Positions 14,330-62,222 of a stretch of 64,000 bases of DNA are shown here, one piece after another (positions within the stretch are counted from its first letter, which is position 1; each line of letters starts with the position of its first letter). Source of the stretch: an uncultured Candidatus Cenarchaeum sp. Its GTDB lineage: Archaea > Thermoproteota > Nitrososphaeria > Nitrososphaerales > Nitrosopumilaceae. Position numbers and translations under genes: made by a program. The stretch is taken from NCBI GenBank assembly GCA_958295735.1, contig OY282369.1:62001-126000 (forward strand), given 5' to 3'. The notes beneath the pieces were generated by a model that searched no databases, was not told the DNA's origin, and saw only the letters and a list, made by a program, of their open reading frames with translations.

Positions 14330-16643
14330 GTGTAGACTTACGTCCATTGCCTAGCCGCGCCTGATGGGGCGCCACCACGCAGGCGAGCAGTGCGCCGGCA
14401 GGCGCGGGCGGCCGCCAGAGCAGGCCGTTCCCGCATCGGGGGGCCGGCGGGCGGGCAGGCGCGGGCGGGCAGGCGGGCGCGGACGGCCGCCAGAGCGGGG
14501 CTCCGTCCCGCCGGAGGCCCGCCGAGCGCGCCGCGGGTCAACATTGCTTCACCATCTTGTAGCAATGTTTCAGTAGGCACGCTTAAGGATCACCGGTCCG
14601 TGACCCCATCCGTGCCAGACTCGGAAACGGTGCTGTTGCGGAGGGAGCTGGTGGCGGTGACCCGGCTCCTGGATGACCTGAAGGCAAAATACGCGAAAGA
14701 CACGGGGGACATGAGGCTGGAGATTGCCGGGCTGCGGGGCGAGATCGATCGCCTGAATGTCGCGGCGGCGCAGCACGCCGGCTGCTGCGGGGACAAGGCA
14801 GAGATTGCCCGGCTGCGGGGCGAGGACAAGGCAGAGATTGCCCGGCTGCGGGGCGAGATCGATCGCCTGCGGGGCGGCAACGATCGCCCCGGGGCAGGGC
14901 CGGCGGCGCCGGCGGCGCGGAGCCGCGCGGCGGGGAATGCGGCGCCGGGCGCGCGCGGCGGGGAATGCGGCGCCGGCGCCGGGGGCGATGCTGCCAAGCC
15001 GGGGCGGGAGCCCGCCGGGGGTGAGAAGGACGCGGGCGCGATGGCCGCGGAGCTGAAGGATGCCAAGAGGCGGCTCGCCTTGTACGACCACCACAACAGG
15101 ACCGATGCCAGGGCGTACAACGCCGATCGGGCCAAGTTCCGCAGGGAGAACGGCACGTACGACAGCGACCGCAAGCCGGGAAAGATCGGCGCGCCGGCGG
15201 GGCACAAGGGGGCGTCGCACCGGCACAAGCCGGGAAGGAAGACCGTCGCCAAGCTGCACGCGTGTGATTACTGCGGGTCCTGCGAGCACCTCAAGCCGCT
15301 GCGGCCGGCCAACAGGATCGCCCTGATTCTGGAAAGCGACGGCAGCATCACGCCCGTCGGCATCTGGGCCGAGCGGGCAAATTGCACGAAATGCTGCAAG
15401 ATCAGCGAGGCGAAGTCGGAGGCGATTCCGGGCACGCAGCTGGGGCTGGCGCTGCTCATGATCGTGGCCGCGCACGTCGCGAAGGCCCTGCCGGACGCGG
15501 ACATCGCCGACCTCATGGAGCAGCTGCACGGCCTGAAGATCTCGCCGTCCGCGGTGCTGAAGGCCCGCAGGGCCATCGCCCGCGTCCTGGAGGCAGTGTA
15601 CCGGCGCATCCTGGAATACATGGTGGCCTACGCCACGTTCGTGCAGTTCGACGAGACCCCCATCAGGATCGCCGGGGCCCAGGGGTACGTCTGGCTGGCC
15701 TGCTGGGGGGATGCGGTGTACATGGTGTGCGTTCACAGCAGGAGCGCGGCCGTGCTGGACGCCCATTTCCCGGGGCTGAAGGACAAGCCGGCGGTGACCG
15801 ACCAGTACTCGGGGTACAACGGCATCAAGGAGAGGCAGGCCTGCATGATCCACATCCTGCGGCATTCCGAGAGCGGCGTGGTCCGCACCAAAGACGCGGA
15901 CGAGAAGGAGAAGGAGAAGCGGCCGTACGATCGGCTGCGGGGCATGTACAGGACGGTCAAGCCCATGGACACCGCGGGCGAGGCCACGATCAAGGAGCTG
16001 GACAGCCAGGTGCTCGACATAGCGGGCGAGTACGGCGAGGGGCACAAGATGCACACGGCCCTCTCCAACGCGCGGCCGAACATGTTCACGTCCCTGAGGC
16101 ATCCCGGCATGCCGTGCCACAACAACCGGGTGGAGCAGGCCATACACGAGGGGCCGGCCAAGGAAAAGAGGTCGCGCCGCCAGCTGAGGAGCGCGTCCGG
16201 CATGCGCTGCCTCGCCGTGACGTGCTCCGTGTTCCAGACGGGGAAGCGCCGCGGAATCTGGCCGGCGCGCATACTGGAGGCCGCCGCCACCGACCCGAAC
16301 TGGAACATACTCGATCCGCCGGCCACCGGGCCGCCGCCCCCCGGCAAGGGCGGCAGCAGCGGCAGCCGCCCGGCCGACGACGACGACGGCTTGCGCCGTG
16401 CCGCCCCGTGCTGAGGCGGCGCAAGCGGTACAACCAGCCCGGATGCCGGCACGGCCCCGGGCGGGGTTCGCCGCGCCGTCGGATCGCGCCGAATGATGCG
16501 CCGCGGCGGGGGCGCCCCGCCCGCCGGATGCGGCCGGAGCCGGCCGGACGGCCGGCAGGCGCGCGGCCCGCGAAGCGGAGGGCCAGCCGCGCCGGCTCGG
16601 GGCCGCGTTTGGGCGCGGCCGGGCAATGGACGTAAGTCTACAC
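14330..16643 (+). mobile_element. complete IS66-family insertion sequence
   Basis: 2314 bp with perfect 22-bp inverted repeats: GTGTAGACTTACGTCCATTG plus CC at 14330-14351 and its exact inverse at 16622-16643. It carries a single transposase gene, without the tnpA/tnpB accessory genes of larger IS66 members. Target duplication: 14322-14329 and 16644-16651. A 57640-57756 fragment is a second, older end of the same element, and the MITE family uses the same ends. Confidence 0.92.
14612..16414 (+). CDS. IS66-family transposase
   Basis: 600 residues from GTG 14612; this start aligns residue for residue with the start of the other IS66 transposase (VPDSETVLLRREL here, MAESGVALLRKEL there) and lies 28 nt from CTTAAG. 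A coiled coil with repeats of KAEIARLRGE is followed by a Gly/Ala linker, a two-Cys finger (CDYCGSC) and CTKCCK, then the DDE core: D347 (QFDETPIRI), D397 (VTDQYSGY) and E508 (NNRVEQAIH). C-terminal tail Gly/Pro/Asp-rich. It ends in TGA and has no lesion. Confidence 0.88.
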   Translation: MPDSETVLLRRELVAVTRLLDDLKAKYAKDTGDMRLEIAGLRGEIDRLNVAAAQHAGCCGDKAEIARLRGEDKAEIARLRGEIDRLRGGNDRPGAGPAAPAARSRAAGNAAPGARGGECGAGAGGDAAKPGREPAGGEKDAGAMAAELKDAKRRLALYDHHNRTDARAYNADRAKFRRENGTYDSDRKPGKIGAPAGHKGASHRHKPGRKTVAKLHACDYCGSCEHLKPLRPANRIALILESDGSITPVGIWAERANCTKCCKISEAKSEAIPGTQLGLALLMIVAAHVAKALPDADIADLMEQLHGLKISPSAVLKARRAIARVLEAVYRRILEYMVAYATFVQFDETPIRIAGAQGYVWLACWGDAVYMVCVHSRSAAVLDAHFPGLKDKPAVTDQYSGYNGIKERQACMIHILRHSESGVVRTKDADEKEKEKRPYDRLRGMYRTVKPMDTAGEATIKELDSQVLDIAGEYGEGHKMHTALSNARPNMFTSLRHPGMPCHNNRVEQAIHEGPAKEKRSRRQLRSASGMRCLAVTCSVFQTGKRRGIWPARILEAAATDPNWNILDPPATGPPPPGKGGSSGSRPADDDDGLRRAAPC

Positions 16644-37400: not shown

Positions 37401-40400
37401 ACGGCCACGCCGGACGGGCTGCTCAGCGAGCCCGCTATGTTTCTGATGCTTCCCCCCGCGCCGTTGAATATGGCGATGCTGTTGTTGCCGGTGTTTGCCA
37501 CGTACACGTGCCCCGTGGTCGGATGCACGGCCACGCCCCGCGGGCCGTCGAGCGAGCCCGCGATGCTGGAGGTGCGGAGTCCCGCGCTGTTGAACACGTC
37601 GATGCTGTTGTTGCCGGTGTTTGCCACGTACACGTGCCCCGTGCCGGGGTGCACGGCCGCGCCGCGCGGGCCGTCGAGCGGGGCGGCGGGGCCGCCGAGG
37701 GTTGTGCTTAATAGCTGCGGCGCCAGGCGCAGGCCGTTCACGTCACCCTGGGAGGCGTCGATGTCGGATGCGGCCAGGGTAGCAACGTTCACGGGCTTGT
37801 TGAACGCGATGCGGAACGGCACGTTCTGCAGGTTCGTGGGGCTCGGCACGGCGGCTTCGACCACCGGCGTCAGGAAGACGTTGCGGGACACTATCGAGAA
37901 CGCGCCCGCGGCGCTCGGGTTGCCCGCCTCGTCGCGGGCGGCGCCGGCCGTGACGTCGACTGTGATCGTGCCGTCGGCGGCGGGCGCGACCGCGAACTCG
38001 TGGGCGTCGCTGCCCCCGCCGTCGCTGCCGCCGGCGCCGGTAGCCGCGAAGTTGACGACGCCGCCGGTCCTGGCCGTTCCCGATACCTCGATGCCCGTCT
38101 CGTCGAACCCGTAGACGGGCTCGCCCCAGTCTATCGTGAACTCGACGACTGCGGCGGGGGTCGGACTCGTCTGCGGCGAGGTGACGTCGGGGCGGGGCGG
38201 CGTGCGGTCTATCTTGACCGATGCCGCGCCGGTTGCCGAGCCGTAGTTTTTCAGCGCGTCGTGCACGGCGACGGCGCTCACGGTGACGTTGAGCGTCTGC
38301 TGGTCGGTGGCGCCTTCCACCTCGAACGCGTACTCGGACGTGCCGAACGCCGAGACGTTGCCGTGGTTGCGGCTGACCACGTAGACGGTGCCCGATATGC
38401 CGTCGACCGCCACGCCGGTCGGCGCCGAGATCGGGCCCGTGACGTCGGCGACGTGGTTCCCCGCGCCGTCGAACGCGGAAAGCCGGGAGCTGCTGTGGGT
38501 CACGTAGATGCGGTCATGCGGGCCGTCGACTGCCACCTCGTACGGGCTGGCGAGGGGGCCGGTGATGTTGAGGACGGGCTGCCGGTCGGGGCCGAGCACG
38601 ACGACGCCGCCGCCGGCGTCCGGAGGGCGCGTTTGGGCCACGTATATGCGGCCCGTCGCGCCGTCGACCGCCACGCCGACCGGGTTGACGAACGAGCCGA
38701 TGCTGAAGGCGCTGCTGCCGGTCGAACCCTCGAACGCGTGGACGCGGCCGAGGAGCGGGTAGGCCACGTACAGGATGCCCGCGTGGCTGTCGAACGCCGC
38801 GCCGACCGGGTTGCCGTCCGGGCCGGCGATGCTGCCCGCGTGGTTGCCCGCGCCGTCGAACACCTCGACGCCTTTGAGGTCCCAGTCGGCCACGTAGACG
38901 GTGCCGTCCGTGCCGTCGACCGCTATGCCGTTCGGGCTGGAGAGCGGGCCGGTGAGGCTGCCCGCGTGGTTGCCCGCGCCGTCGAACACCTCGACGCGGC
39001 CGTGGTTCGAGCTGGACACGTAGATGCGGCCGGACAGGGCGTCGACCGCCATGCCGTGCGGCGTGGAGAGGTTGCCGCTGCCCGGGCCGGCGCCGAAGTC
39101 CCCGTAGTGCGGCCACGCCTGCCTCAGGTTCCGCACCGCGCCCGAGGTGGCCGTGATGTGGGACACGTCGAGGGCCGTGGCGTTCGCGGGCTCGTCGAAG
39201 GTGACGTTGAAGTGCACCGTCCGCAGGCGGGAGGGCCCCGGCGTCGCCGGGGCGATCGCCGGGATCGGGCCGGTCCGGTCCACGATGATGCTCGCCTGGC
39301 CGGCCTCGTTTCCGTGCCCGCTCCGATCGTCCGCGCTGCCCGCCGGCAGCCTCACGGTGAGGTTCCCCTCGACCGGATCTTCCACGTCGAAGGCGTACGC
39401 CGCATCGAACAGCGAGACGCGGTGGTTGTCCCGGCCGGCCACGTACGCGTCGCCCGTGGCGGCGTCCACCCCCACGCCGGTCACTGTGAGGAGCGGGTCG
39501 TAGGGGTGGGTGAGGTTGGCGACGTGCTGCCACGCGGAGTCGAACACGGCGACGCGGCTGCCGAAAGCGTCGGCGACGAACACGTTGCCCGCGGGATCCA
39601 CGTCCACGGCGAACGGGTAGGCGAACGAGTTCGTGATGTTGACGACGGGCTGCCCCCCGGCATCGTACACGCGGACGGTGTTGTTCCCCGAGTCGGCCAC
39701 GTACACGGTGCCCGAAGAGTCGACCGCGATGCCGTTCGGCTGGTTGTACGGGCCGCCGACGTCGCGGACGTACTGCCCATCGGGGTCGAACATTTGCACG
39801 GTGTGGTTCAGCCTGACGGCCACGTACGCGTTGCCCGAGGAGTCGACGGCCACGCCGCTCGGGTTGGCGAACGAGTTCCGTATGTCGTGGACGTGGCGCC
39901 ACGCGGCGTCGTACACGCGGACGGTGTTGTTGCCGGTGTCGGCCACGTACACGCGGCCGTGCGGGCCGCCCGCCGCCACGTCCTCCGGCCTCAAGAACGG
40001 GCCGCCCACGTGGCCGAGGTGGTTGCCCGCCCTGTCGAACACGGAGACGCGGCCGTTCTGCTTCTCGGCCACGTACACGCGGCCCCCGGCGTCAACGGCC
40101 ACGCCGTGCGGCTCGTCTAACTGGCCGTCGCCCGGGCCGTTGCCGCCGAACGTCGCGGCGTGCGTCCAGACGCTGCGCAGGTTCGTCACGTTCCCCGAGG
40201 TGGCATTGATGTCCGATGCCTCGAGGGTCGCGGGGTCTATCGGCTCGTCAAAGCCCATGCTGAACGGCACGTCCCGCAGCGCGGTGGAGTGGAACTGCGC
40301 CGGGGCGATCGCCGGGATCGGGCGCGCCGCGTCGTGGACGACCAGGCGCCAGGCGGCGTTGCTGGGGTTGCGCGCGGGATCGAGCACCGCCCCATGCTTG

Positions 40401-42112
40401 ACGCTGGCCCAGATCGTCCCGTCCGATACCGGCGAGACGTCGAACGAGTACGAGTCGCCGGAGCCCGTGAAGTTTTCCACGCCGCCGTGCCCGGCGGTGC
40501 CCAGGATCACGACGTCGTCGGACGTGAACCCGTCGACGTCCTCGTCCCAGTCCACACGGAAGTTTATGGTCGGGGCATCGGTGGGGCTGGGCTGCGCGGC
40601 GGTGACGGTCGGCGTCTGGGGGGTCCTGTCCACGGTGACGCTCGCCGTGTTGGAGGGATAGTTCCACTTGTTTCCCTCGGCTGCCTTTTGGTGATTCTGC
40701 ACGCGGCAACCGGCCATGCTTACGGAGAATGTCCCTTCCTGAACCTCCACGTCAAAGGCGTAGTAGTGCTCGAAGACCTGGACTTGGTGGTTGCCGCTGT
40801 CCGCCACGTACATGCGGTCCGAGCCGTAGAATGTCACGTCCTGCGGATTGTTGAAGCCTGTGATGTTGGCTACGGGGCTCGTTGCGCCAGTCGCCCAGTC
40901 TATGTTTGCTCCGGGGCCCGGGAGTTGCCGGACGACGTCGAATACGTGGACTTTGTCGGTGCCCGCGTCGGCCACGTACATGCGGCCCGCCCTGTCCGCC
41001 CCCACGCCGCGCGGGTTGTCAAACGGGCCGGTGATGAAGCCGACGGTCCACCAATTACTGGCAGGGGCAGCTATCCTCACGCGATCGAGGTCCGGCTCGG
41101 ACACGAATACGTTGCCGCGGAAGTCTGCCCCCACGCCGGACGGTACTGAACGAACGTAATCGGAATTAAAAGCTAATACTGAGCTGTCTATGTCAATGGA
41201 GTGTTGGAGGTTCGAATGCCTGTACAGCGCGGTGCGTCCGCCGTGGCCCGCGTCGGCCACCGCCAAGAATTCGTCGGCGATTGCCATGTCCACCGGACTG
41301 GAAAGTGTCTGGCCGCCGTAGTGATAACCGTCAGCATTGACTGTACTGTGAAGGGTGGCGACGTGGGTAAGAGCCCTGTCGAAGATCAGGACCCGGCTGC
41401 CGCTCGCGTTGGCCACGAATATTCTTCCAGAGTTGTCGACCTCTACGCCCGACGGGTCGGCGAAAGTGAAGGGGAGTTTTCCCTCGTAATTCAGGCTAGA
41501 ATCAAAGTACGAGACGCGGTCATTTTCCGTGTCGGCCACGAATATGCGTCCCGTGGCATTGTCCACCGCTATGCCGTCAAGCCTTTTGAACTGGCCGTTG
41601 CCATCGCCCTCGCTCCCAAAGTTTTCGACGTGGCGCCACGCCGGGCGCAGGTTCTTGACGGTGCCGGAGGTGGTGGTGATGTCGGACTCTTGGATGGTTG
41701 CGGGGTTTACGTTCCCGCTAAAACTAATCTTGAATGGTACGGGACTCAGGTTGGTGGGCGAGGTCGTGTCGACGGAGATTACGGGCGTCGGGAACTTCTG
41801 CACGCCGCTGCCGGCGCAGATGCTGGGCGCCAGAAAATTCGTGTTCGCGTGCGCGGGCGGCGCGGCGGCGGCGCAGACCGCAAGAAAAAGGGCCGCGGAC
41901 AGGACCAGGACCGCCGCGAGCGGAAGCGGGCGCCGCGATGCGGGCCTCCCCGCGCGGGGATGTCCTGCTAGCGGCCGCACGGGCCGTCGCCTCCGTCCCT
42001 CGTCCCCCGCGCATCTCCCCACACAACTTCGGGCTCCACGTCCCGGCCGCACGGGCCGCCTCCCCCGTCCCTCATACCCCCCCCCCGCAGGACGAAAGGT
42101 GTGGCTGCGCAA
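22490..42112 (-). CDS. giant secreted NHL-propeller / Ig-like / periplasmic-binding protein
   Basis: One frame of 6540 codons without interruption. TTG 42112 lies 28 nt from CCTATATTC, fitting a leaderless start; a signal peptide (core PLPLAAVLVLSAALFLAVC, cut near AHA) ends at about residue 90, after an odd Arg/Gly-rich leader. From about 150 to 4800 modules alternate: NHL-type propellers (11 by my count; blades like PRGVAVDASGRVYVADTGN) and ~95-residue Ig-like domains (SPT..A.PI.F.V.F...V.GF, SYSFEVSPASDGTI.VDIP). Then come further Ig-like domains to ~5580, divergent ones to ~6020, a type-1 periplasmic-binding-like domain (~6030-6410) and a C-terminal beta domain. Probably extracellular, for adhesion or ligand binding. 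No membrane anchor is visible. Confidence 0.85.
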   Translation of the reverse strand: MRSHTFRPAGGGYEGRGRRPVRPGRGARSCVGRCAGDEGRRRRPVRPLAGHPRAGRPASRRPLPLAAVLVLSAALFLAVCAAAAPPAHANTNFLAPSICAGSGVQKFPTPVISVDTTSPTNLSPVPFKISFSGNVNPATIQESDITTTSGTVKNLRPAWRHVENFGSEGDGNGQFKRLDGIAVDNATGRIFVADTENDRVSYFDSSLNYEGKLPFTFADPSGVEVDNSGRIFVANASGSRVLIFDRALTHVATLHSTVNADGYHYGGQTLSSPVDMAIADEFLAVADAGHGGRTALYRHSNLQHSIDIDSSVLAFNSDYVRSVPSGVGADFRGNVFVSEPDLDRVRIAAPASNWWTVGFITGPFDNPRGVGADRAGRMYVADAGTDKVHVFDVVRQLPGPGANIDWATGATSPVANITGFNNPQDVTFYGSDRMYVADSGNHQVQVFEHYYAFDVEVQEGTFSVSMAGCRVQNHQKAAEGNKWNYPSNTASVTVDRTPQTPTVTAAQPSPTDAPTINFRVDWDEDVDGFTSDDVVILGTAGHGGVENFTGSGDSYSFDVSPVSDGTIWASVKHGAVLDPARNPSNAAWRLVVHDAARPIPAIAPAQFHSTALRDVPFSMGFDEPIDPATLEASDINATSGNVTNLRSVWTHAATFGGNGPGDGQLDEPHGVAVDAGGRVYVAEKQNGRVSVFDRAGNHLGHVGGPFLRPEDVAAGGPHGRVYVADTGNNTVRVYDAAWRHVHDIRNSFANPSGVAVDSSGNAYVAVRLNHTVQMFDPDGQYVRDVGGPYNQPNGIAVDSSGTVYVADSGNNTVRVYDAGGQPVVNITNSFAYPFAVDVDPAGNVFVADAFGSRVAVFDSAWQHVANLTHPYDPLLTVTGVGVDAATGDAYVAGRDNHRVSLFDAAYAFDVEDPVEGNLTVRLPAGSADDRSGHGNEAGQASIIVDRTGPIPAIAPATPGPSRLRTVHFNVTFDEPANATALDVSHITATSGAVRNLRQAWPHYGDFGAGPGSGNLSTPHGMAVDALSGRIYVSSSNHGRVEVFDGAGNHAGSLTGPLSSPNGIAVDGTDGTVYVADWDLKGVEVFDGAGNHAGSIAGPDGNPVGAAFDSHAGILYVAYPLLGRVHAFEGSTGSSAFSIGSFVNPVGVAVDGATGRIYVAQTRPPDAGGGVVVLGPDRQPVLNITGPLASPYEVAVDGPHDRIYVTHSSSRLSAFDGAGNHVADVTGPISAPTGVAVDGISGTVYVVSRNHGNVSAFGTSEYAFEVEGATDQQTLNVTVSAVAVHDALKNYGSATGAASVKIDRTPPRPDVTSPQTSPTPAAVVEFTIDWGEPVYGFDETGIEVSGTARTGGVVNFAATGAGGSDGGGSDAHEFAVAPAADGTITVDVTAGAARDEAGNPSAAGAFSIVSRNVFLTPVVEAAVPSPTNLQNVPFRIAFNKPVNVATLAASDIDASQGDVNGLRLAPQLLSTTLGGPAAPLDGPRGAAVHPGTGHVYVANTGNNSIDVFNSAGLRTSSIAGSLDGPRGVAVHPTTGHVYVANTGNNSIAIFNGAGGSIRNIAGSLSSPSGVAVHPTTGHVYVANTGNNSIAIFNGAGGSIGSIAGSLSGPSGVAVHPDTGHVYVANSGDNSIAVFDSARRSTLNITGLDNPVAVAVHRITGDIYVAEFNGDRIAVHDSAGRRLANITDSVSRPYAVALDGVTDTAYAVSSGYDRVTAFNTAAYEFGVAGAADNSTLEVRLPIATVRDRDGGASLASGTARIAIDRRAPVPDIALDHAGPTAAAYAVGFTVRWDEPVYEFNEAGIAVSGTGRTGGVIGFAAAGAGAGGDGEGRNSHTFAVAPTVDGTVTVNVTAGAARDEAGNPSAAVGLSTTAFNVVRLTPVVEAAAPSPTNLQDVPFRIAFNEPVDSSTLDASDIDASQGDVNGLRLAPQLLSATLGGPAAPLDGPRGAAVDGTTGAVYVANTGNNSIDVFSSAGLRTSSIAGSLDGPRGVAVHPGTGHVYVANTGNNSIAVFDGAGESIRNITHAFSVPAGVAVHPGTGHVYVTDTGNNRIVEFDGAGNRIHDMTLTDPSGVAVHPDSGDIYVAGSVNGIVSVFDRNWNSALNITGLDNPVAVAVHRITGDIYVAEHNGDRIAVHDSAGRRLANITDSVSRPYAVAVDGATGIAYAALRDSAHALAFDTAEYAFEVEGAADGSTLEVSMPAGSVRDGAGEYNAASGAARIAIDRTAPEPSVTAPQRGPAALQAVPLGLKFGEDIDPATLAATDINASSGDVRNLRLELWHNATIGGGAGAARLSEPRGVAADASSGLTYVADGAGRVLAFNSTGHSAGGLPGPFDSPSGVAVDASGSIYVANSGNGTVQIFNSSREPDGELPGPFASPRGIAVDASGSIYVANSGNGTVQIFNSSREPDGGLPGPFDSPSGVAVDASGSIYVANSGNGTVQIFNSSREPDGELPGPFASPRGVAADASGRIYVADDAADDAAASRVLAFNSSGSPVASASGFDGPRGVAVDSSGRIHVAEAAAGRVRILDHAYAFDVIGPEGGRALAVNLAAGSVLDLAGNANEATNTLGIRIDRTGPEATVAAAAAGPTGLRVVPFSLEFGEAVDAGTLAAADINASSGEVGNPRLAPRHNSTFGERGQGAGQFDDPRGVAVDGTTGAVYVADANNKRVHVFNSTLHHAGYLPGPFASPRGVAVDGFLGAVYVADHGAGRVLVFDSATGNHTASIADRLSSPAAVAIDPSGTIYVADQAAGRVQAYDLAAGHRIGALPGTFDQPSGVAVDGSTGAVYVADAAGVRVFDSSREPDGELTGTFASPRGVTVDGSGRVYVADAAGVRVFDSSRGPAGELPGRFASPRGVAVDGASGRVYVADAGIHGVLAFDAAYAFGVEEPDNERVLEVRLPAGSVRDAAGNENAGSGTASILVNWTGPIPKIASGQQSPTNASTIGFTVEFGENVTEFGAGDVALSGAATRGSVENFDGAGASYSFEVSPASDGTVRVDIPAGAARNALGNPSDAAERFYMAYDGTPPAAAVAAVPDGPTNETAVPFTLAFSSAVDASTLEASDVDASSGNATDLRAAWRHDAAFDGGPDRLSLPTGIAVDGSGNTYVADVLFTERVRVFDQDREYVTDITGPSRPQGVAVDGVTGDIYVTDAGRGTVRVYHPNMTRADDLPASFNTPVGVAIGGPHGRVHVVESGGNVHVHDPDGTRIHSFTGLSGPYGVAVDASGRVYVAERGNGAVRVYHPNGTQAGELPGQFSQPVGVAVDASGRVYVADYGSGSGGIGGASGPGFVRVHDPAGAEIAEIRNIPGGQLADPVGVAIDPASGALHVVDSGPRRIHVFDVAYAFSVENSTDLRTLTVSLPAGRVQDHAGNGNEESNAAGIRIDRTAPAPAISSTQPDPTGTSPILFTVEFGENVTGFDAGDVGLTGTANRGGALTVEGAGASYTFEVRPASNGTILVDIPENAAQDAAGNGNTRAEQFSIEYDSSLPTPTVTAAQRSPTNAKPISFQVNFSLPVTGFNASGIALSNTTGHGGVERFAGAGASYSFEVRPASDGTILVDIPAGAARSAGTGSIAALRFSITYDGTPPAPTVTAAQRSPTGESPIRFTVNFTESVDGLELADVALSGAAAGAANLVAVNLVAVNSTTYTFDVSPASDGTIHVDIPENAAEDDAGNGNTASERFSIEYDGTGPAPTVAAAQPGPTNATTIGFLLDFGGDVDPETVAASDISASSGNVTNLRAVPRHDGHFGGPGTGDGEFDAPAGVAAGGPSGEIYVADSGNRRVQIFDSSRRFAGTLPGPFVDPAGVAVDAASGRVYVADRGGFVAAFDAGRERLANITNASMTDPAGVAVDSSGNLYVADAGTGRLHAFNSSMMHVGSTAAGVLDGPEGAAADSAGRLYVAEPGPGRISVFDSATLASNGSLQAPPEFDFDSPRGVAVDGSGRVYVADTQNGRVRIFDPAHEYAGDLPGTFSSPYGVAAGGPSGGIYVAETPLDRIRAFDMKAYEFDVASPDAGHVLTARMPAGSVRDAVGNPNEESNAAGIRIDRTGPVPTVSPRDQSPATAATVGFRLDFNEAVDGATLDASDVNASSGSVANLRAAWHHDETFGGPGTGDGLFASPSGIAVDGSGNTYVADRGNGRVQVLGPARDHVASIGGLDAPRGVAVDAASGRVYVANTGNDSVRVYHPDRTYAADLPGSFDNPAGVAAGGPYGRIHVADTGNDRIRVYDFSLNHIYDIPGLDGPAGVAVDALGRVYVADTNASAVPVYPPNSIEAAADLPGPFDRPTGVAVDASGRVYVAETGGDGRVRIYHPDWTHAADIENPINTPYGVAVDPASGALYVTESAAGLIRPFDEAYDFDVEDPADQQTLTVRVPAGGVQDLAGNGNEESNEASISVIRDVPIPVVTSAQRSPTSESTIGFRVDFNIPVDGLVAGDIMLSNETGHGGVENFAGAGASYSFEVSPASDGTVRVDIPEGAAHGAAGSAQGNPSAAAERLTVTYDGKLPLPAVAKALDGPTNLTAVPFSLSFSENVNASTLVASDVDPSSGNVAELRAAWHPAPTFDGFGDGLFVSPSGIAVDGSGITYVADRGNDRVQVHDPAQDRVDGIGGLDAPRGVAVDAASGRVYVANTGNDSVRVYHPDRTYAADLPGSFDNPAGVAAGGPYGRIHVADTGNDRIRVYDFSLNHIYDIPGLDGPAGVAVDALGRVYVADTNASAVPVYPPNSIEAAADLPGPFDRPTGVAVDALGRVYVAETGGDGRVRIYHPDWTHAADIEDPINTPYGVAVDPASGALYVTESAAGLIRPFDEAYDFDVDDPDDQQTLTVRVPAGRVRDAAGNANAESNEESIRIDRIAPAPVINSTQPDPTGAPSIPFTVEFGESVKEFGADAIMLSNETGHRGVENFTGSGASYSFEVRPASDGTILVNIPENVVVDDAGNGNTASEPFSITYNSSLLTTTVTADEDSPTNAATITFRVVFSLPVTEFNASAIMLSNETGHRGVERFAGSGASYSFEVSPTSDGTIKVDIPAGAARSAGTDSTAAPQFSITYDGTRPIPRVTAEQQSPTRESPIRFTVNFTEPVKGFERPDVELSGNTISGAEHFDPVNATTYEFYVRPSDNGTIRVDIPENVADDDAGNGNTASEPFSIDYDSSLPFPTVTTEEDNPTSASPITFRVDFSLPVTGFAKADIMISGTADHDGVENFDPVSATRYEFDVSPSTNGTIIVDIPANAARDAADGSIGSAPAAQFSIEYDGEPAPIPAPVPTVTAAQSSTTDASPINFQVDFSRPVTGFAKTDIVISGDAAHGGIDNFAAVNTTRYTFEVSPSTNGTVIVDIPAGAAQDAADDSIGSAEAMPLSITYNGEPATVPPTPTPTPIPTVTTEHGSPTSASPITFRVDFSRPVTGFDHTGIVLSGTADHGGVENFVSVSATRYSFEVSPSTNGTVIVDIPANVARDAADGNTGNAAAEQFSITYNGEPAPIPPTTAPIPTVTTEHGSPTNASTITFRVDFSRPVTGFDHTGIVLSGTADHGGVENFVSVSATRYTFEVSPTSDGTILVDIPENAAQDTADGNTGSTAAEQFSIEYAAAAPGAELGVLSAEITGPQQATIRYDAAASAGASAYGPISIGGADRPVTLSGSGTETHVLRFGGEPAPPDATGSVTVDPAAVTGPAGNLRGDGAYRQELADGQAPPLASASLDLEAGENGRLALVFGEAAAAAPNVQSFAGNIVIRGAGGAVALSAADVPSAASGRAGDTAFALDVSGAKRVELNAADLDPATVELPGGFVSDASGNLYGGPAVPLAYAPDSSPPVLVAAAFRLAEGGGAGRLVVTFDEAVTAPAAGPLEGEIEVRGGSGAAAVLSGDDVAPAASGSGGDRTFALPVSDQRRGALSGPEFSDPGSTSVLLPDGFVTNGRAGYERERAPLVVARDSDGPSFLWAFVAGGGSVVAVYSEPVLSLPSHYGNITVDGAAAGGGGASGADAFGSNVVVSWGAGAAASAGSAVGFYLSADITDRFGNDLKNPGPKSTGGQGGSCDDKPLVRAGVFHGGPGDPSAAAARMGASAFNAVSESRGYPFCVGTSEYALPPGAGAAAAEAALRGAHAAGEGPLLYVGPASDAALAGMAGYASGNGITVISHSSAARSLAVEGDRIFRLEPGTAHLARALATEVALGGHAAVVPVVQAGLRGADYGLLGPLASDLGPLGIQFGAPVEFREGGAAAGPVEEAVARAAGSRGAGSVAVVYVGSDAELAALAGGVPPGSPAREAAWFAPGGAGAGAGDGVAASPAILADAAAIQLARDTRLSAVQFAVDRNGVTDYIDRITGAPAGSATPAYAAYEAVRVLGGALVPAGGDPSLAGGNVAGAANLEGGPLGRTGMDGSGDLRFPVTYGAWSVSGTAAEWVRAPDLLRGLDACGIDLEKSALALPPLTAGSTSRPVRQTVTNIGTGPMPAVSVSATDWTQLRGGDPIPGATLPFSYTEMAVGLDGASPRRADSTPLAAGTEIPGGTPPGGSVDVDFRINLVALEVLRADSISQTVTFVANCG
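27675..28295. repeat. internal duplicated propeller, unit 1
   Basis: About 620 bases nearly identical to 29034-29654, at a constant offset of 1359 bp and without indels. The few differences are mostly silent (for example GGTCCTC versus GGTTCTC). Confidence 0.85.
29034..29654. repeat. internal duplicated propeller, unit 2
   Basis: Partner of 27675-28295. The Ig-like domains between the two units differ much more, so the propellers were duplicated or converted recently. Confidence 0.85.
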
Positions 42113-47712: not shown

Positions 47713-48289
47713 CGCGCCGCAGGCCGGGCGCGCCTGCGTTGCGCGAAAATCGCGTCGCCTGTTCGCCCGCGTCCTCCCTTGTCCGGCGCGGGCCGTTTTT
47801 CTCGATCGCCTTCTCGCCCTTCCTGGCGGGGAATGCGCCGGGCGGGGCCTCCGCCCGCCGCGGACCGCGGCGAATTCCGGAGGGCCCCGGCGGGGCGCAT
47901 ACGAAGCGCCGGCCCGGCGCGGGCGGGGCGGCCGCCGACTCCCGCGGCGGCCGCGGCCGCCGGCGGCAGGGCCCGGCAGCCGCGGCCGCCGCGGCGCCTC
48001 CCGCGTCCGGCATCGCGGCGGCGGGGGAGGGGGGGCGTGCCCGCGCCAAAAAAAAAACGAATTCGGCCCGGATCTCCCGGCCCGCGGGCCGGCCGGGGCG
48101 GTCGTGGGACGCGGCGGCGGGGGGAGGGGCGGGTGGCGGCGGGGCCCGCAGGATGAGAGTTGCGGAAAGCCGTATCCCCGCAACGCTATGCGGGGGGAGG
48201 GGCGGGTGGCGGCGGGGCCCGCAGGGCCCGCGCCCAAAACCTGCGCCCGGGGAGTGCCGGATCGGCGCCCCGCCGCGGCACGCCGCCGC
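47713..48289. other. gene-free stretch with dispersed repeat
   Basis: About 47745-47935 is the inverted partner of 9655-9850. Further on, GCGGGGGGAGGGGCGGGTGG occurs twice (about 48118 and 48190). No gene seen up to the stop of HEPN-TPR copy 3. Confidence 0.5.
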
Positions 48290-50216: not shown

Positions 50217-51368
50217 TGCGATCCCGAAATCGTTTCGCAGCCTAGCTAGCAAGATACTACTCCCCCGCGTGCTCGTCTTTGACTGTTTGCCCCCTTTCGG
50301 GCATCTTCCGCGCGAGCGCCCTGGCGGGCGCCCCCGGCGCGCCCTGGTCCGGGGAGCCGCGGGGCCCGCCGCGGTTGTACCACTGGACGAACTCGCCCAT
50401 CCCGCTGAACCGCTCGATCTTCCCCCGGATCTCGCCGTGGAACCTCTCCAGCTTGCCGTTGGTCTGGGGATGCCCCACCCCCGCCAGGATGTGCCTTATG
50501 CCCAGCCCGGCGAGCCTCCTCCCGGACTCCGCCCCGCCGCGCTTCCCGGCCTCCGCCTCGGCGCAGGACCGGGACCCGTGGTCGGCCATCATACAGGCGG
50601 GCCTGCCGTGCTCGGCCACGGCCTTCTAGAGCACCTCCAGGGCGTGCTTCCCCGCGGCCTCGTCGAACGCGCCGCAGCCCGCGATGAACCGCGAGGCGTC
50701 GTCCCGGTGCGCCACGAACCGCCTCCCGTCGGGGAGCAGCTTGTGGTCGGCGTGCCGCGGGGAGTTGGAGAGCGTCCTCCCGTGCCTGATCCGCTCGCGC
50801 CTCCCGCTCTTCTCCGGGCGCTCCGCCGCCATCCCCTCCTCCTTCGGCACGCGGCGTATGGTGTTGCGCGGCACGCGGATCCTCGCCGTGACCGCCACGA
50901 TCCGCCCCGGCCCGGACGCGCCCGTCCTGCACTGGAGGAGCGCCCCTCCGCAGGGATCTTGGCGCGGTCCTGGATCTCCTTCCTCGGCCCGCCCCGTACG
51001 CCCGGCGCGGGCGCCTCCCCCGTCCCGCGGTACCGGGCGCATATACGCCGCGCGCGGCGCGGCGAGGCCCCCGCCCGTGCCGCGATCCCGGCGCTCCGGG
51101 CCCCCTTCATCTCGCCCGCCACCCGCTTCACCCCGGCGGGATCCAGCTTCGCCACCACTGCGTGCCTCTTTCGCCGAGTTCGTACGCGGCGTTTTCGACA
51201 TGGGGAGCGCCCGGACCCCCCACGCACCTTCATTTCCGATCCGGCCGCGCGGCGGGCCAGCCCGCCGGCCGGGATGCGAGACGGTTTCGGAACCGCCCCG
51301 CCGTCCCCTCCCCCGCGAACCCCCCGTTCCAGTCGTGGATCGGCACGCGGAACGATTTCGGGATTGTG
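50217..51368 (-). mobile_element. IS481-family element, copy B
   Basis: Ends TGCGATCCCGAAATCGTTTC (50217) and CGATTTCGGGATTGTGCG (to about 51370), an imperfect inverted repeat of about 22 bp. Contains one broken transposase gene. It lies directly upstream of small gene copy 4. Confidence 0.65.
50257..51170 (-). pseudogene. IS481 transposase, frameshifted and amber-interrupted
   Basis: The N-terminal helix-turn-helix (ARRICARYRGTGEAPAPG) is in one frame and, after a one-base loss near 50945, the rest is in another. LPDGRRFVAHRDDASRFIAG (first Asp) leads to an in-frame TAG at 50626-50628; the same frame continues with MMADHGSRSC (second Asp) and the hallmark HPQTNGKLERFHGEIR (Glu), then FVQWYNRGGPRGS. 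The same amber is present in copy C. Two lesions make it a pseudogene. Confidence 0.75.
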
Positions 51369-51947: not shown

Positions 51948-53106
51948 GCGCGATCCCGAAATCGTTTCGCAGCCTAGCCGGCAAGATACGCCACCCCGGC
52001 GTGCTCGCCTTGGCCGCTTGCCCCCTTTCGGGCATCTTCCGCGCGAGCGCCACGGCTGGCGCCCCCGGCGCGCCCTGGTCCGGGGAGCCGCGGGGCCCGC
52101 CGCGGTCGCGCCGCCGGACGAACTCGCCCATCCCGCCGAACCGCTCGATCTTCCCCCGGATCCCGCCGCGGAGCCCCGCCAGCCTGCCGTCGGTCCGGGG
52201 ATGCCCCGCCCCCGCCGGGATCCGCCTCGCGCCCAGCCCGGCGAACCTCCTCCCGGACTCCGTCCTGCCGCGCTTCCCGGCCTCGGACTCGCTGGCGCAG
52301 GACCGGGACCCGTGGTCGGCCATCACAAAGGTGGGCCTGCCGTGCTCGGCCACGGCCTTCTAGAGCACCTCCAGGGCGTGCTTCCCCGCGGCCTCGTCGA
52401 ACGCGCCGCAGCCCGCGATGAACAGTGAGGCGTCGTCCCGGTGCGCCACGAACCGCCTCCCGTCGGGGAGCCGCCCGCAGCCGGCGTGCCGCGTGGAGTT
52501 GGAGAGCGTCCCCCCGTGCTTGATCCGCTCGCGCCTCCTGCTCTTCTCCGGGCGCTCCGCCGCCATCCCCTTCTCCTTCGGCACGCGGTGGATGGTGTTG
52601 TGGGGTATGCAGATCCTCGCCGTGACCGCCATGATCCGCTCTAGCCGGGACGCGCCCGTCCTGCACTGGAGGAACGCCTTCTCCGCCGAGATCTTGACGT
52701 GGTCCTGGATCTCCTTCCTCGGCCTGCCCTGTACGCCCAGCGCGGGCACCTCCCCCGTCCTGCGGTACCGGGCGCAGATCCGCCGCGCGCGGCGCGGCGA
52801 GACCTCCATCCGGGCCGCGATCTCGGCGCTCCGGACCCCCTTCTTCATCTCGTCCACTATCCACTTCACCTTGACGGGATCCAGTTTCGCCGTCACTACG
52901 TACCTCCTTCGCCGCGTCACTACGTAACGTTTTCGCCACGGGGAGCGCTCGGGCCCCCCGCACACCTTCATTTCCGCTCCGGCCGCGCGGCGGGCCAGCC
53001 CGCCGGCCGGGATGCGAGACGGTTTCGGAACCGCCCCGCCGGCCCCTCCCCCGCGAACCCCCCGTTCCAGGCGTGGATCGGCATGCGAAATGATTTCGGG
53101 ATTGTA
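51948..53106 (-). mobile_element. IS481-family element, copy C
   Basis: Ends GCGCGATCCCGAAATCGTTT and TGCGAAATGATTTCGGGATT (to about 53106). Similar to copy B but less decayed in its N-terminal half. It lies just upstream of small gene copy 5. Confidence 0.65.
51974..52896 (-). pseudogene. IS481 transposase interrupted by the same amber codon
   Basis: GTG 52896 with a Shine-Dalgarno GGAGGT five bases ahead. VTAKLDPVKVKWIVDEMKKG, a helix-turn-helix (AARMEVSPRRARRICARYRR), then RRFVAHRDDASLFIAG and an in-frame TAG at 52360-52362; after it FVMADHGSRSC in the same frame. The third catalytic block has decayed (GHPRTDGRLAGLRG against GHPQTNGKLERFHG in copy B), so the Glu is lost, and the frame runs past its normal stop. 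Confidence 0.75.
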
Positions 53107-60278: not shown

Positions 60279-60306
60279 GGCCGTCTGCGGCCTGCTACTA
60301 TTTATG
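60279..60306 (-). promoter_or_regulatory. TATA box and imperfect palindrome of HEPN-TPR copy 4
   Basis: CATAAATA (60306-60299), then GGCCGCAGACGGCC (60292-60279; five-base arms GGCCG and CGGCC around CAGA), then ATG 60267. IS481 copy A is inserted 23 bp upstream of the TATA box. Confidence 0.55.
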
Positions 60307-60380
60307 CGTTTTTAAACAGAGTCAGGTATGTGTTGTGCAGAAATTAGATACTCCGGGCGTCCAGATCGGGCCCCGGGAGG

Positions 60381-60471
60381 GTGTAGACTTACGTCCAAAC
60401 CGAAACCACGCCTAGCAACGGCAACCGCCCCCCGATCTCACGCCCGGATCACAATGGACGTGAGTCCACAC
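60381..60471. mobile_element. MITE copy 7 with perfect target duplication
   Basis: 91 bp, GTGTAGACTTACGTCC to GGACGTGAGTCCACAC, flanked by CCGGGAGG at 60373-60380 and 60472-60479. The best preserved copy and the one closest to the IS66 ends. Confidence 0.88.
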
Positions 60472-60494
60472 CCGGGAGGAGCCGTCCCGGTAGG

Positions 60495-60672
60495 GTGGAA
60501 ATGAGGATGCGCGGGCGTTGGAGGGGAACGCTATCGCCCTGCGGTAGCCCGGGCCCGTGGGAGGAGTGGAAATGAAGGTGCGCGGGCGTCGAAGGGGAAC
60601 GCCCCACCCGTCGAACGCCGCCGACTGCACGTACTAGTGGAAACGAAGGTGCGCGGGCGTCGAAGGGGAACG
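60495..60672. repeat. three 36-bp direct repeats with 35-bp spacers (CRISPR-like spacing)
   Basis: Repeats at 60495-60530, 60566-60601 and 60637-60672 begin GTGGAAATGAAGGTGCGCGG and end GGGGAACG; units 2 and 3 differ at one base, unit 1 at a few. Both spacers are 35 bp and unrelated. The geometry is that of a short CRISPR array, but the repeats lie inside IS481 copy A, and single GGAAATGAAGGTG motifs occur upstream of the transposases of copies B (51225-51237) and C (52963-52975). Transposase-binding sites are the more likely reading. No cas gene is present. Confidence 0.7.
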
Positions 60673-60707
60673 GCCGCAGGCATGTCGGGGGCCGCCGGGC
60701 CGGGACC

Positions 60708-61690
60708 GTGGCAAAACTGAACAGGCCCAAGATCGCGTGGACAGTCCGGCAGAAGCGGAAGGGCCAGATGGCGAACCGCGAGATCGCGGTGGCCATGGGC
60801 GTGTCGGCCGTCCGGGTCAAGAAACCGCGGGCGCGGCACGAGGGCATCAAGCCCGCCGGCATACCCCCTCCGCGCAGGCCGGGCAGGAAGGCCGGGAGCG
60901 CGCCGGGGCGGGGGGAGCACTCCGCGGTGCTGCGGGCGCACGCCGGCAGGCCGGGCTCGTCGTCGTCCGTCCGCGACGCGCCGTCTGGGGATGGAATCAA
61001 CACATCGCGGCGCGGCATACGCCGCGTGTTGCCGGAGGCGGGATCGGCCGAAGGGCGGCCCGAAAAGTCCGGGAGGCGCAAGCGGGTCAGGTTGTGGGGG
61101 AGTATTCCAACTCAATGCGGCACGCCGACTACGAGCTGCCGGACGACGGCGGGCGGTCCGTCGCCTGCCGGGACGATGCGTCCAGCCTCGTCGCGGGGCG
61201 CGGCGTCTTCGACCGCGCCGCTGCCGAAAACGCCGTTTCCGTGCTTGGAAACGCAGTTTTTGTGCGCGGAAAACCGGCATCCGTCCCTGCCTGCCGCGGC
61301 GGCCGGTCCTGCGCGAACGAAGAGTCGCGCAGGCGCAGGCGCGGGTGCGCGGCCTCCTAGAAAAAGCTCGCGGAGCTCGGCATCTCGCACCGCCTCGCGC
61401 GCGCGGGCCGCCCGCAGACCAACGGCGAGTTGGGGAGGTTCCGCGGGGAGCTGCGGCGCGAGCTGCCGATCTTCGTGGCGGCCTCCCGCGGCATCGCGAC
61501 GAAGGCGCCCCCGGCGGGGTCGATGCGCGCACGGGCGGGCCGCTCTGCACGTCCAAGCCGCGCGGTCCGGCGGAGAGGTACGCGGACCGGCACAACGGCG
61601 GCCGGCCGGACGTGCCGCTCGACAGGTCGAAGCGGGAGACCCCCGCCCGGGCCCACGCGAGAAAGATGCCCTCGCCGGATGCCGCCGGGC
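60708..61690 (+). pseudogene. decayed IS481 transposase, copy A
   Basis: Starts near 60708 (MAKLNRPKIAWTVRQKRKGQ, helix-turn-helix REIAVAMGVSAVRVKK) and is broken by a frameshift near 61090. In the second frame HADYELPDDGGRSVACRDDA (first Asp) and GVFDRAAAENAV follow, then a TAG at 61360-61362, GRPQTNGELGRF (Glu block) and, in a third frame, DRHNGGRPDVPLDRSKRETP. Clearly IS481 family, of a different lineage from copies B and C, and inactive. Confidence 0.7.
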
Positions 61691-61944
61691 GCGGCGCAGA
61701 GCCGGGCGGACGGCGCCGGACGTCCGGGCCGCCCGCCGGCGGGATGGGCGCGCCGCCGGGCGGGGGCGGCGACGCCGCCCGAAAGCCGCGATTCTCCCGG
61801 CACGCCCGCCCCGGCCGGCGACGCCGATCCTGGCCCCTCCCGGGCCCCCCATGGCGCCCCGCGCAGGCAGTCCGAATCCTCGTCGCGGGGAATCTTGCCA
61901 AGGGGTCCGTGGCGGCGGGGGCATGCTTATTTCTGCACAACACA

Positions 61945-62222
61945 AAACGGAGCCGAGTGCGAGGCCGGCGGCCCCGCTCCGCGGGCGCGAATCCCGTTAG
62001 GCAAAACCGTTCACGCCCGCAGCCGGCGGGCGGTCAACCGCCCCGTGCTGGCGCCGGTACGAGGCCTCGTACCCGCTGGCCACAGGCGCGAAAGCGCCTT
62101 CGTTGATCCGCATTCGCGCCCCCGGAGCTGGGTTGCCGGCCCCGTGCTGGCGCCAGACGGGAAAGAGATGCCGGATTGGCGAATCGGGTTATGCCACGAA
62201 TGGTTGGGGGGAGGTGAGGCGG
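61945..62222. other. 3' flank of small gene copy 7, no gene
   Basis: GC-rich repeats related to those at 49815-49945 and 51390-51470 (GGCCGGCGGCCCCG and GCGGGCGCG). Before the IS481 insertion this was the spacer between the small gene and HEPN-TPR copy 4. Confidence 0.55.

What the first reader, a model, noticed from the sequence alone, without database searches (positions are those of the whole stretch)
60495..60672. CRISPR-spaced 36/35-bp repeats inside an IS481 element
Three repeats of 36 bp with two 35-bp spacers upstream of a transposase. One repeat motif also precedes the transposases of IS481 copies B and C. Either transposase-binding sites with regular 71-bp phasing, or an IS that captured or hit a CRISPR array.
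Basis: partly seen in the sequence, partly recalled or inferred. Interest (0 to 1): 0.55.

Follow-up and report, generated by a model that had tools for sequence, protein, structure and literature searches.

The report
CRISPR spacers scattered through a genome
The triple repeat in the insertion sequence looks like a misplaced product of the cell's own CRISPR memory-writing enzyme, and about a hundred similar misplaced insertions were found in the half of this archaeal genome that was examined, which suggests that a CRISPR integrase can act as a genome-wide mutagen in nature.

Summary
The repeats are real: 36 bp at 60495, 60566 and 60637, with two unrelated 35-bp spacers. A sister insertion sequence (IS) holds the 36-bp site once, so this copy gained two 71-bp repeat-plus-spacer units. 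The repeat is not the genome's CRISPR repeat (14-16 of 36 matches, chance level). Yet the genome carries a complete type I-G CRISPR-Cas system whose 531-repeat array has the same geometry: 36-bp repeats, 35-bp modal spacers. In 1.664 Mb (53% of the genome), 117 direct-repeat pairs lie at offsets 69-74 against about 2 per neighbouring offset. Nearly all differ in sequence, and identical copies peak at 36 bp. None of the four relatives sampled (800 kb) has a pair at these offsets. Sixteen of 97 sites have an uninterrupted paralogue, 12 of 103 spacers have a traceable source elsewhere in the genome, and five of those 12 sources carry a TTN flank (5.6% by chance). Best explanation: off-target spacer integration by Cas4-Cas1/Cas2, about 200 events genome-wide. 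The biochemistry is known from the laboratory. I found no report of such accumulation in a natural genome. Enzyme dependence is inferred, not tested.

The parts
60322..61951 (+). IS481-like element 'IS A' (degenerate copy); ends marked by the inverted arms 60322-60347 / 61926-61951
   Evidence: inverted repeat I2; sister copies; sister transposase fragment hits Pfam rve_3/rve
60495..60530 (+). repeat copy 1 (target-site duplication, 36 bp)
   Evidence: matches the position of the single site in the sister IS
60531..60565 (+). ectopic spacer 1 (35 bp)
   Evidence: no second copy in the genome at E<=1e-4; core absent from viral contigs
60566..60601 (+). repeat copy 2
60602..60636 (+). ectopic spacer 2 (35 bp)
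   Evidence: no second copy in the genome at E<=1e-4; core absent from viral contigs
60637..60672 (+). repeat copy 3, contiguous with the transposase region as in the sister IS
48117..48225 (.). second ectopic site: identical 36-bp copies 48117-48152 and 48190-48225 around a 37-bp spacer whose first 17 nt are the 3' end of the native CRISPR repeat
   Evidence: the junction sequence is found nowhere else in the genome
41972..42080 (.). third, more diverged ectopic site: copies 41972-42008 and 42044-42080 (86% alike), 35-bp spacer
15637..15871 (.). uninterrupted paralogue ('empty site') of the ectopic site at C1:1014416; gap-free over 235 nt at 89%
60374..60476 (.). about 100-bp dispersed palindromic element inserted in IS A (separate event, not part of the repeat array)
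   Evidence: dozens of genome copies; absent from the sister IS

Best explanation
IS A carries a small neo-CRISPR array. The host's type I-G adaptation complex (Cas4-Cas1 fusion plus Cas2) used a 36-bp stretch upstream of the degenerate transposase as if it were a CRISPR repeat, inserted a spacer-length fragment and duplicated the 36 bp, and did so twice. The same enzyme has done this at about 200 places in the genome, mostly leaving repeat-spacer-repeat units whose 'repeat' is the local sequence. Shown: geometry identical to the native array, the genome-wide excess, the empty sites, spacers copied from other places, and the PAM-like flank. Inferred: that Cas4-Cas1/Cas2 is the enzyme, that these loci make no crRNA, and that loose target choice reflects a horizontally acquired system lacking a specificity factor.
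For: Native array: 531 repeats (up to 3 mismatches), all on one strand; 36-bp repeat; spacer length 35 in 58 of 138 and 36 in 39 of 138. Type I-G genes: Cas4-Cas1 (Cas1g 1.3e-161), Cas2g, Cas3g, Cas8g, Cas7g, Cas56g. Survey of window plus 80 x 20 kb: offsets 69-74 give 10, 17, 41, 34, 10, 5 = 117 pairs; the seven offsets on either side (62-68, 75-81) total 31 over 14 offsets; 54 of 117 pairs are identical and their length peaks at 36 (15), 37 (8), 38 (6). Controls: G001, same genus without a Cas1 match, 400 kb, none at offsets 64-74; G016, G037, G008, 120/140/140 kb, none at 64-78; a shuffle of 864 kb, none. IS A against its sister: single site. Empty paralogues for 16 of 97 sites. Bounded sources for 12 of 103 spacers; TTN flank in 5 of 12 against 5.6% background, P = 3e-4. 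Spacers with a second copy in the sample: ectopic 12 of 97, native 0 of 147. Window site 48117 has half a native repeat in its spacer. Sites are spread as expected at random (mean 1.16, variance 1.19 per 20 kb). One Cas1 only in the genome.
Against: Neither IS A spacer has a traceable source, and R1 differs from R2 at about 11% of positions, so IS A's own case rests on geometry and the sister copy. Seven of 12 traced sources lack TTN. Most spacers (91 of 103) have no source in the DNA searched. About 13 of the 117 pairs are expected from the local background. Control relatives have lower GC (57%, 36-41%) and fewer repeats. Dependence on Cas1 was not tested. The GGAAA motif near the target edge points the opposite way from the GCGGAAAG at the native leader junction.
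Confidence: 0.88

Rival explanations
1. Regularly phased transposase- or regulator-binding sites of the IS481-like family, expanded in this copy.
For: The first ~22 nt of the repeat lies upstream of other IS481-like transposases.
Against: The other IS copies looked at have the motif once; the same 36/35 pattern occurs in many unrelated sequences; a tandem gain of binding sites would copy the intervening 35 bp too, but the spacers are unrelated.
Confidence: 0.04
2. A remnant of a genuine CRISPR array captured by, or hit by, the IS.
For: 36/35 geometry matches the host array exactly.
Against: Repeat unrelated to the native repeat (14-16 of 36, chance); the repeat is IS sequence present singly in the sister; the cas genes and leader lie far away; the listed native-repeat matches all lie in the array region from C1:2939609.
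Confidence: 0.02
3. Replication slippage or templated repair of staggered breaks, producing duplications with filler DNA and no Cas involvement.
For: Filler copied from elsewhere in the genome occurs in repair (general knowledge); the genome is rich in repeats.
Against: Such events would not be expected to fix both the duplication at 36 and the insert at about 35, equal to the host array; no peak at these offsets in the same-genus genome; TTN enrichment.
Confidence: 0.05
4. A non-CRISPR integrase or very small mobile element that makes 36-bp target duplications.
For: Any integrase with staggered attack duplicates its target (general knowledge).
Against: The inserts are different from one another, and 12 of 103 are copies of unrelated genomic places, so there is no conserved element; the only Cas1 is the type I-G one.
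Confidence: 0.02

Closest known systems
Non-canonical (off-target) spacer integration by E. coli Cas1-Cas2, Nivala, Shipman and Church 2018 (paper not held; seen only as cited in passages of PMC9456107 and PMC11788318, otherwise recalled)
   Same: Spacer-length DNA inserted outside arrays, making new repeat-spacer-repeat units from local sequence.
   Different: There it followed Cas1-Cas2 overexpression; here a native system in a natural archaeal genome shows an estimated 200 accumulated events, by a type I-G Cas4-Cas1 fusion.
Ectopic spacer acquisition within arrays (Streptococcus thermophilus, S. mutans; seen as search listing, and passages of PMC8047081)
   Same: Spacer gained at a place other than the leader end.
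   Different: Those insertions are at real repeats inside the array; here the targets are unrelated chromosomal sequences.
Type I-G Cas4/1 adaptation in Methanosarcina barkeri (PMC10504553; passages)
   Same: Same fused integrase type; PAM 5'-GAA-3' on the PAM strand, i.e. TTC on the other strand; some nonspecific integration suggested in vitro.
   Different: In vitro system on a plasmid array; no genome-wide off-target record in the passages seen.
Suppression of off-array integration by Csa3a in Sulfolobus islandicus (PMC9456107; passages)
   Same: Proposes that Cas1 needs an accessory factor to avoid integration outside arrays.
   Different: Subtype I-A; no accumulation in the genome was described in the passages I saw.

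Membership tests
CRISPR array of the host type I-G system | Repeats share the native repeat sequence | tested here: not met
   IS A copies match 16, 15, 14 of 36; random 36-mers mean 13.6, 99th percentile 17
CRISPR array of the host type I-G system | 36-bp direct repeats separated by unique ~35-bp spacers | tested here: met
   native 36 / mode 35
CRISPR array of the host type I-G system | Leader and cas genes adjacent | tested here: not met
   cas genes and leader lie around C1:2930000-2984500, the window is C1:62001-126000
Off-target Cas1-Cas2 spacer integration | Target duplication of native repeat length around an insert of native spacer length | tested here: met
Off-target Cas1-Cas2 spacer integration | Uninterrupted pre-insertion site exists | tested here: met
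   IS A against sister; 16 of 97 sites overall
Off-target Cas1-Cas2 spacer integration | Insert is a copy of DNA from elsewhere, with PAM at the source | tested here: inconclusive
   12 of 103 spacers traced, TTN at 5 of 12, P = 3e-4; no source found for the two IS A spacers
Off-target Cas1-Cas2 spacer integration | Depends on active Cas1-Cas2 | not testable with these tools
   only correlation: no such pairs in 400 kb of the same-genus genome lacking a Cas1 match
IS481-like insertion sequence (the host element) | DDE integrase core and terminal inverted repeats | tested here: met
   sister fragment: Pfam rve_3 1.6e-7, rve 3.9e-7; arms 60322-60347 / 61926-61951. IS A's own fragments gave no Pfam hit; the IS481 label itself is recalled
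Type I-G CRISPR-Cas system | Cas4-Cas1 fusion, Cas2, Cas3g, Cas8g/Csx17, Cas7g/Csb1, Cas5-6g/Csb2 | tested here: met

The most novel reading that the evidence does not exclude
A horizontally acquired type I-G adaptation module, working in a host that lacks whatever normally restricts it to the leader, acts as a continuing genome-wide mutagen. It writes spacers at random chromosomal sites, creates new mini-CRISPR loci, disrupts genes and mobile elements, and leaves an unselected record of what the integrase samples, including self DNA that has been purged from the working array.
Probability: 0.6. Interest if true: 0.88.

Novelty: new variant of a known kind. Interest (0 to 1): 0.8.

Why it matters
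Off-target integration by Cas1-Cas2 is a laboratory observation whose natural weight is unknown. A genome with an estimated 200 dispersed repeat-spacer-repeat scars would show that CRISPR adaptation can be a large source of insertion mutations, and would suggest how new arrays with new repeats could be born. It would also give a record of spacer choice free of selection: 12 of 97 ectopic spacers have another copy in the sampled genome against 0 of 147 native ones. The test used here, a peak of direct-repeat offsets at the native repeat+spacer length, can be run on any genome with an array.

Tried and rejected
Rejected: transposase-binding phasing, captured CRISPR array, slippage and another integrase (see rivals). 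Protein-coding tandem repeats probably cause most other pairs, at offsets that are multiples of three (93, 102, 123, 126), but 70, 71 and 73 are not multiples of three. Tried without result: exact search of genome contigs for a 24-mer of the IS A repeat and for 28 nt of the native repeat, viral contigs for both IS A spacer cores and the native repeat, Rfam on 60300-60720, Pfam on ORFs of IS A, hairpin strength of the targets (mean longest stem 4.94 against 4.91 in GC-matched background), native-array spacers against the sampled genome (0 of 147). A first simple test for a second copy of spacers gave 7 of 97 for spacers against 318 of 1803 for random 32-mers, because random 32-mers often lie in long repeats; it does not by itself support self-origin, which is why I used matches bounded at the spacer edges. 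One apparent self match (site C1:404122, match at L064:611) was dropped because its flanks match too, so it is a second copy of the site. In one search, one of the 12 spacers is multi-copy (18 hits) and one is that same homologous site.

Literature: searches found no paper reporting genome-wide natural accumulation; the library is partial (open-licence PMC only).

Full report
Observation. Three direct copies of a 36-bp sequence lie at 60495-60530, 60566-60601 and 60637-60672, exactly 71 bp apart, with two unrelated 35-bp spacers. Shuffles of the window gave no match to the 36-mer with up to three mismatches.

What was there before. The closest relative of this insertion sequence in the same genome (C1:2568357-2569729, 86% alike over the transposase region) carries the 36-bp site once, running straight into the transposase region. 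IS A therefore gained two units of 36 + 35 bp. It also gained, separately, an about 100-bp dispersed palindromic element at 60374-60476. The two spacers are unrelated to each other and have no other copy in the genome at E up to 1e-4.

The host. The genome is one contig of 3,166,131 bases, GC about 69-71%, in the same genus as a 2,045,086-bp genome that I recall as Cenarchaeum symbiosum (name from recall). It has a complete type I-G CRISPR-Cas system: Cas3g, Cas8g, Cas7g and Cas56g on one side of the array, a Cas4-Cas1 fusion and Cas2 on the other. There is one Cas1 in the genome. The array has 531 repeats within three mismatches, all on one strand. The repeat is 36 bp and the spacers are mostly 35 (58 of 138) or 36 (39 of 138) bp. 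So the triple repeat in IS A has the geometry of the host array but not its sequence: the three copies match the native repeat at 16, 15 and 14 of 36 positions, like random 36-mers.

The genome-wide pattern. I searched the window and 80 stretches of 20 kb (1.664 Mb, 53% of the genome) for direct-repeat pairs with an unrelated spacer, at offsets 40-130, dropping pairs with the native repeat, tandem arrays and duplicates (on the first 864 kb this filter took 381 raw pairs to 158). Offsets 69 to 74 gave 10, 17, 41, 34, 10 and 5 pairs, 117 in all. The seven offsets below and the seven above gave 31 in total, so about 13 of the 117 are expected background. Of the 117, 54 have identical copies, and the length of identical copies peaks at 36 (15), with 37 (8) and 38 (6) as expected from chance matches at the edge. 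The sequences differ from site to site apart from a few sites with two spacers; five such chained sites were found among the 97 of good length. Sites are spread as a random process would place them: mean 1.16 and variance 1.19 per 20-kb stretch. By proportion the genome holds about 200.

Controls. The same search on 400 kb of the same-genus genome without a Cas1 match gave 8 clean pairs, none at offsets 64-74 and one at 75. Three other relatives with Cas1 (120, 140 and 140 kb; GC 36-41%) gave two clean pairs in all, at 49 and 62. A dinucleotide shuffle of 864 kb of the own genome gave none. The controls have lower GC than the host, which is a weakness, but the within-genome peak does not depend on them.

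Insertion, not decay. For 16 of 97 sites a paralogue elsewhere in the sampled genome runs through the repeat without interruption (at most six gap letters, at least 30 nt on both sides). Examples are C1:1014416 against window 15637-15871 (235 nt, no gap), C1:2788178 with four and C1:2911733 with three such paralogues.

Where the spacers come from. With bounded matching (match stops at the spacer edges), 12 of 103 spacers have a source elsewhere in the DNA in hand, which includes loci from whole-genome searches of 49 spacers. At those 12 sources, five have TTN next to the protospacer on one side, against 5.6% of random positions (P = 3e-4). A type I-G Cas4/1 from M. barkeri uses GAA on the PAM strand, that is TTC on the other (PMC10504553, passages). 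Native spacers behave differently: 0 of 147 have a copy in the same sample, against 12 of 97 ectopic ones (Fisher P = 1e-5), and their GC is 0.586 against 0.695. I read this as selection removing self spacers from the working array but not from inert ectopic loci; that is inference. At window 48117 the spacer begins with 17 nt of the native repeat followed by 20 nt found nowhere else in the genome in that junction, as expected if a fragment of a CRISPR array was captured.

Targets. Target sequences are enriched for GGAAA (13 of 68 against 2.0 expected from GC-matched background). It sits 2-7 nt inside one edge: 10 occurrences in six positions, against 7 in 40 positions outside. IS A fits this (GTGGAAA). 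The native repeat has GCGGAAAG at its leader end, but pointing the other way, so I do not claim the same recognition. Hairpin strength is not enriched.

Mechanism. Most likely the Cas4-Cas1/Cas2 integrase, with a ruler for 36-bp staggered attack and about 35-bp prespacers, integrates at chromosomal sites resembling a preferred edge, and repair fills the gaps and duplicates the target. In IS A this happened twice; copies 2 and 3 are more alike than copy 1, which suggests that the second event is the one between them. Type I-G is rare in this phylum (Csb1 in 2 of 398 genomes drawn), so the system was probably acquired from outside and may lack a factor that restrains it, as proposed for Csa3a in Sulfolobus (PMC9456107, passages). 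This last step is conjecture.

Novelty. Off-target integration is known from E. coli with overexpressed Cas1-Cas2 (Nivala 2018, not held; cited in passages). My searches found no report of a natural genome carrying this load. I call it a new variant of a known kind.

Limits. The survey covers about half the genome; thresholds were set while exploring; enzyme dependence, timing and crRNA production are untested; IS A's own spacers are untraced.

Noticed in passing
G000 C1:2939609 to about 2981980 (L096, L052): A type I-G CRISPR array of 531 repeats, very large by recalled standards; the listing has a gap without repeats between about 2946164 and 2947501.
   Followed up: partly
window 60374-60476 and dozens of places in the genome; tandem copies at C1:928041-928331 and C1:910983-911190: A roughly 95-100-bp palindromic dispersed element, sometimes in head-to-tail tandem; one copy lies near cas1 (C1:2984636). 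No Rfam match.
   Followed up: no
window 51219-51237 and 52957-52978 (minus strand); C1:1176536, 1112184, 1634413, 1329745-1329853: The motif GTGGAAATGAAGGTG(T/C)G precedes several IS481-like transposases and also stands in an inverted pair between other sequences.
   Followed up: partly
L096 17608-17741 (C1:2939609-2939742): At the leader-distal end of the array two spacers were inserted with a repeat unit that starts inside the last native repeat (its final 11 nt) and runs into the flank.
   Followed up: no
G000 C1:1154762-1155253: A second Csb1/Cas7g homologue far from the CRISPR locus.
   Followed up: no
L055 1986-2170 (C1:209985 onward): Another IS481-like copy related to IS A carries its own ectopic array with a different repeat (two 73-bp units); one spacer matches C1:967840-967873 at 97%.
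   Followed up: partly
window 22490-42112 (minus strand): A single open frame of 6540 aa made largely of 123-126-bp and 300-339-bp repeats, among many repeat-rich genes in the window.
   Followed up: no
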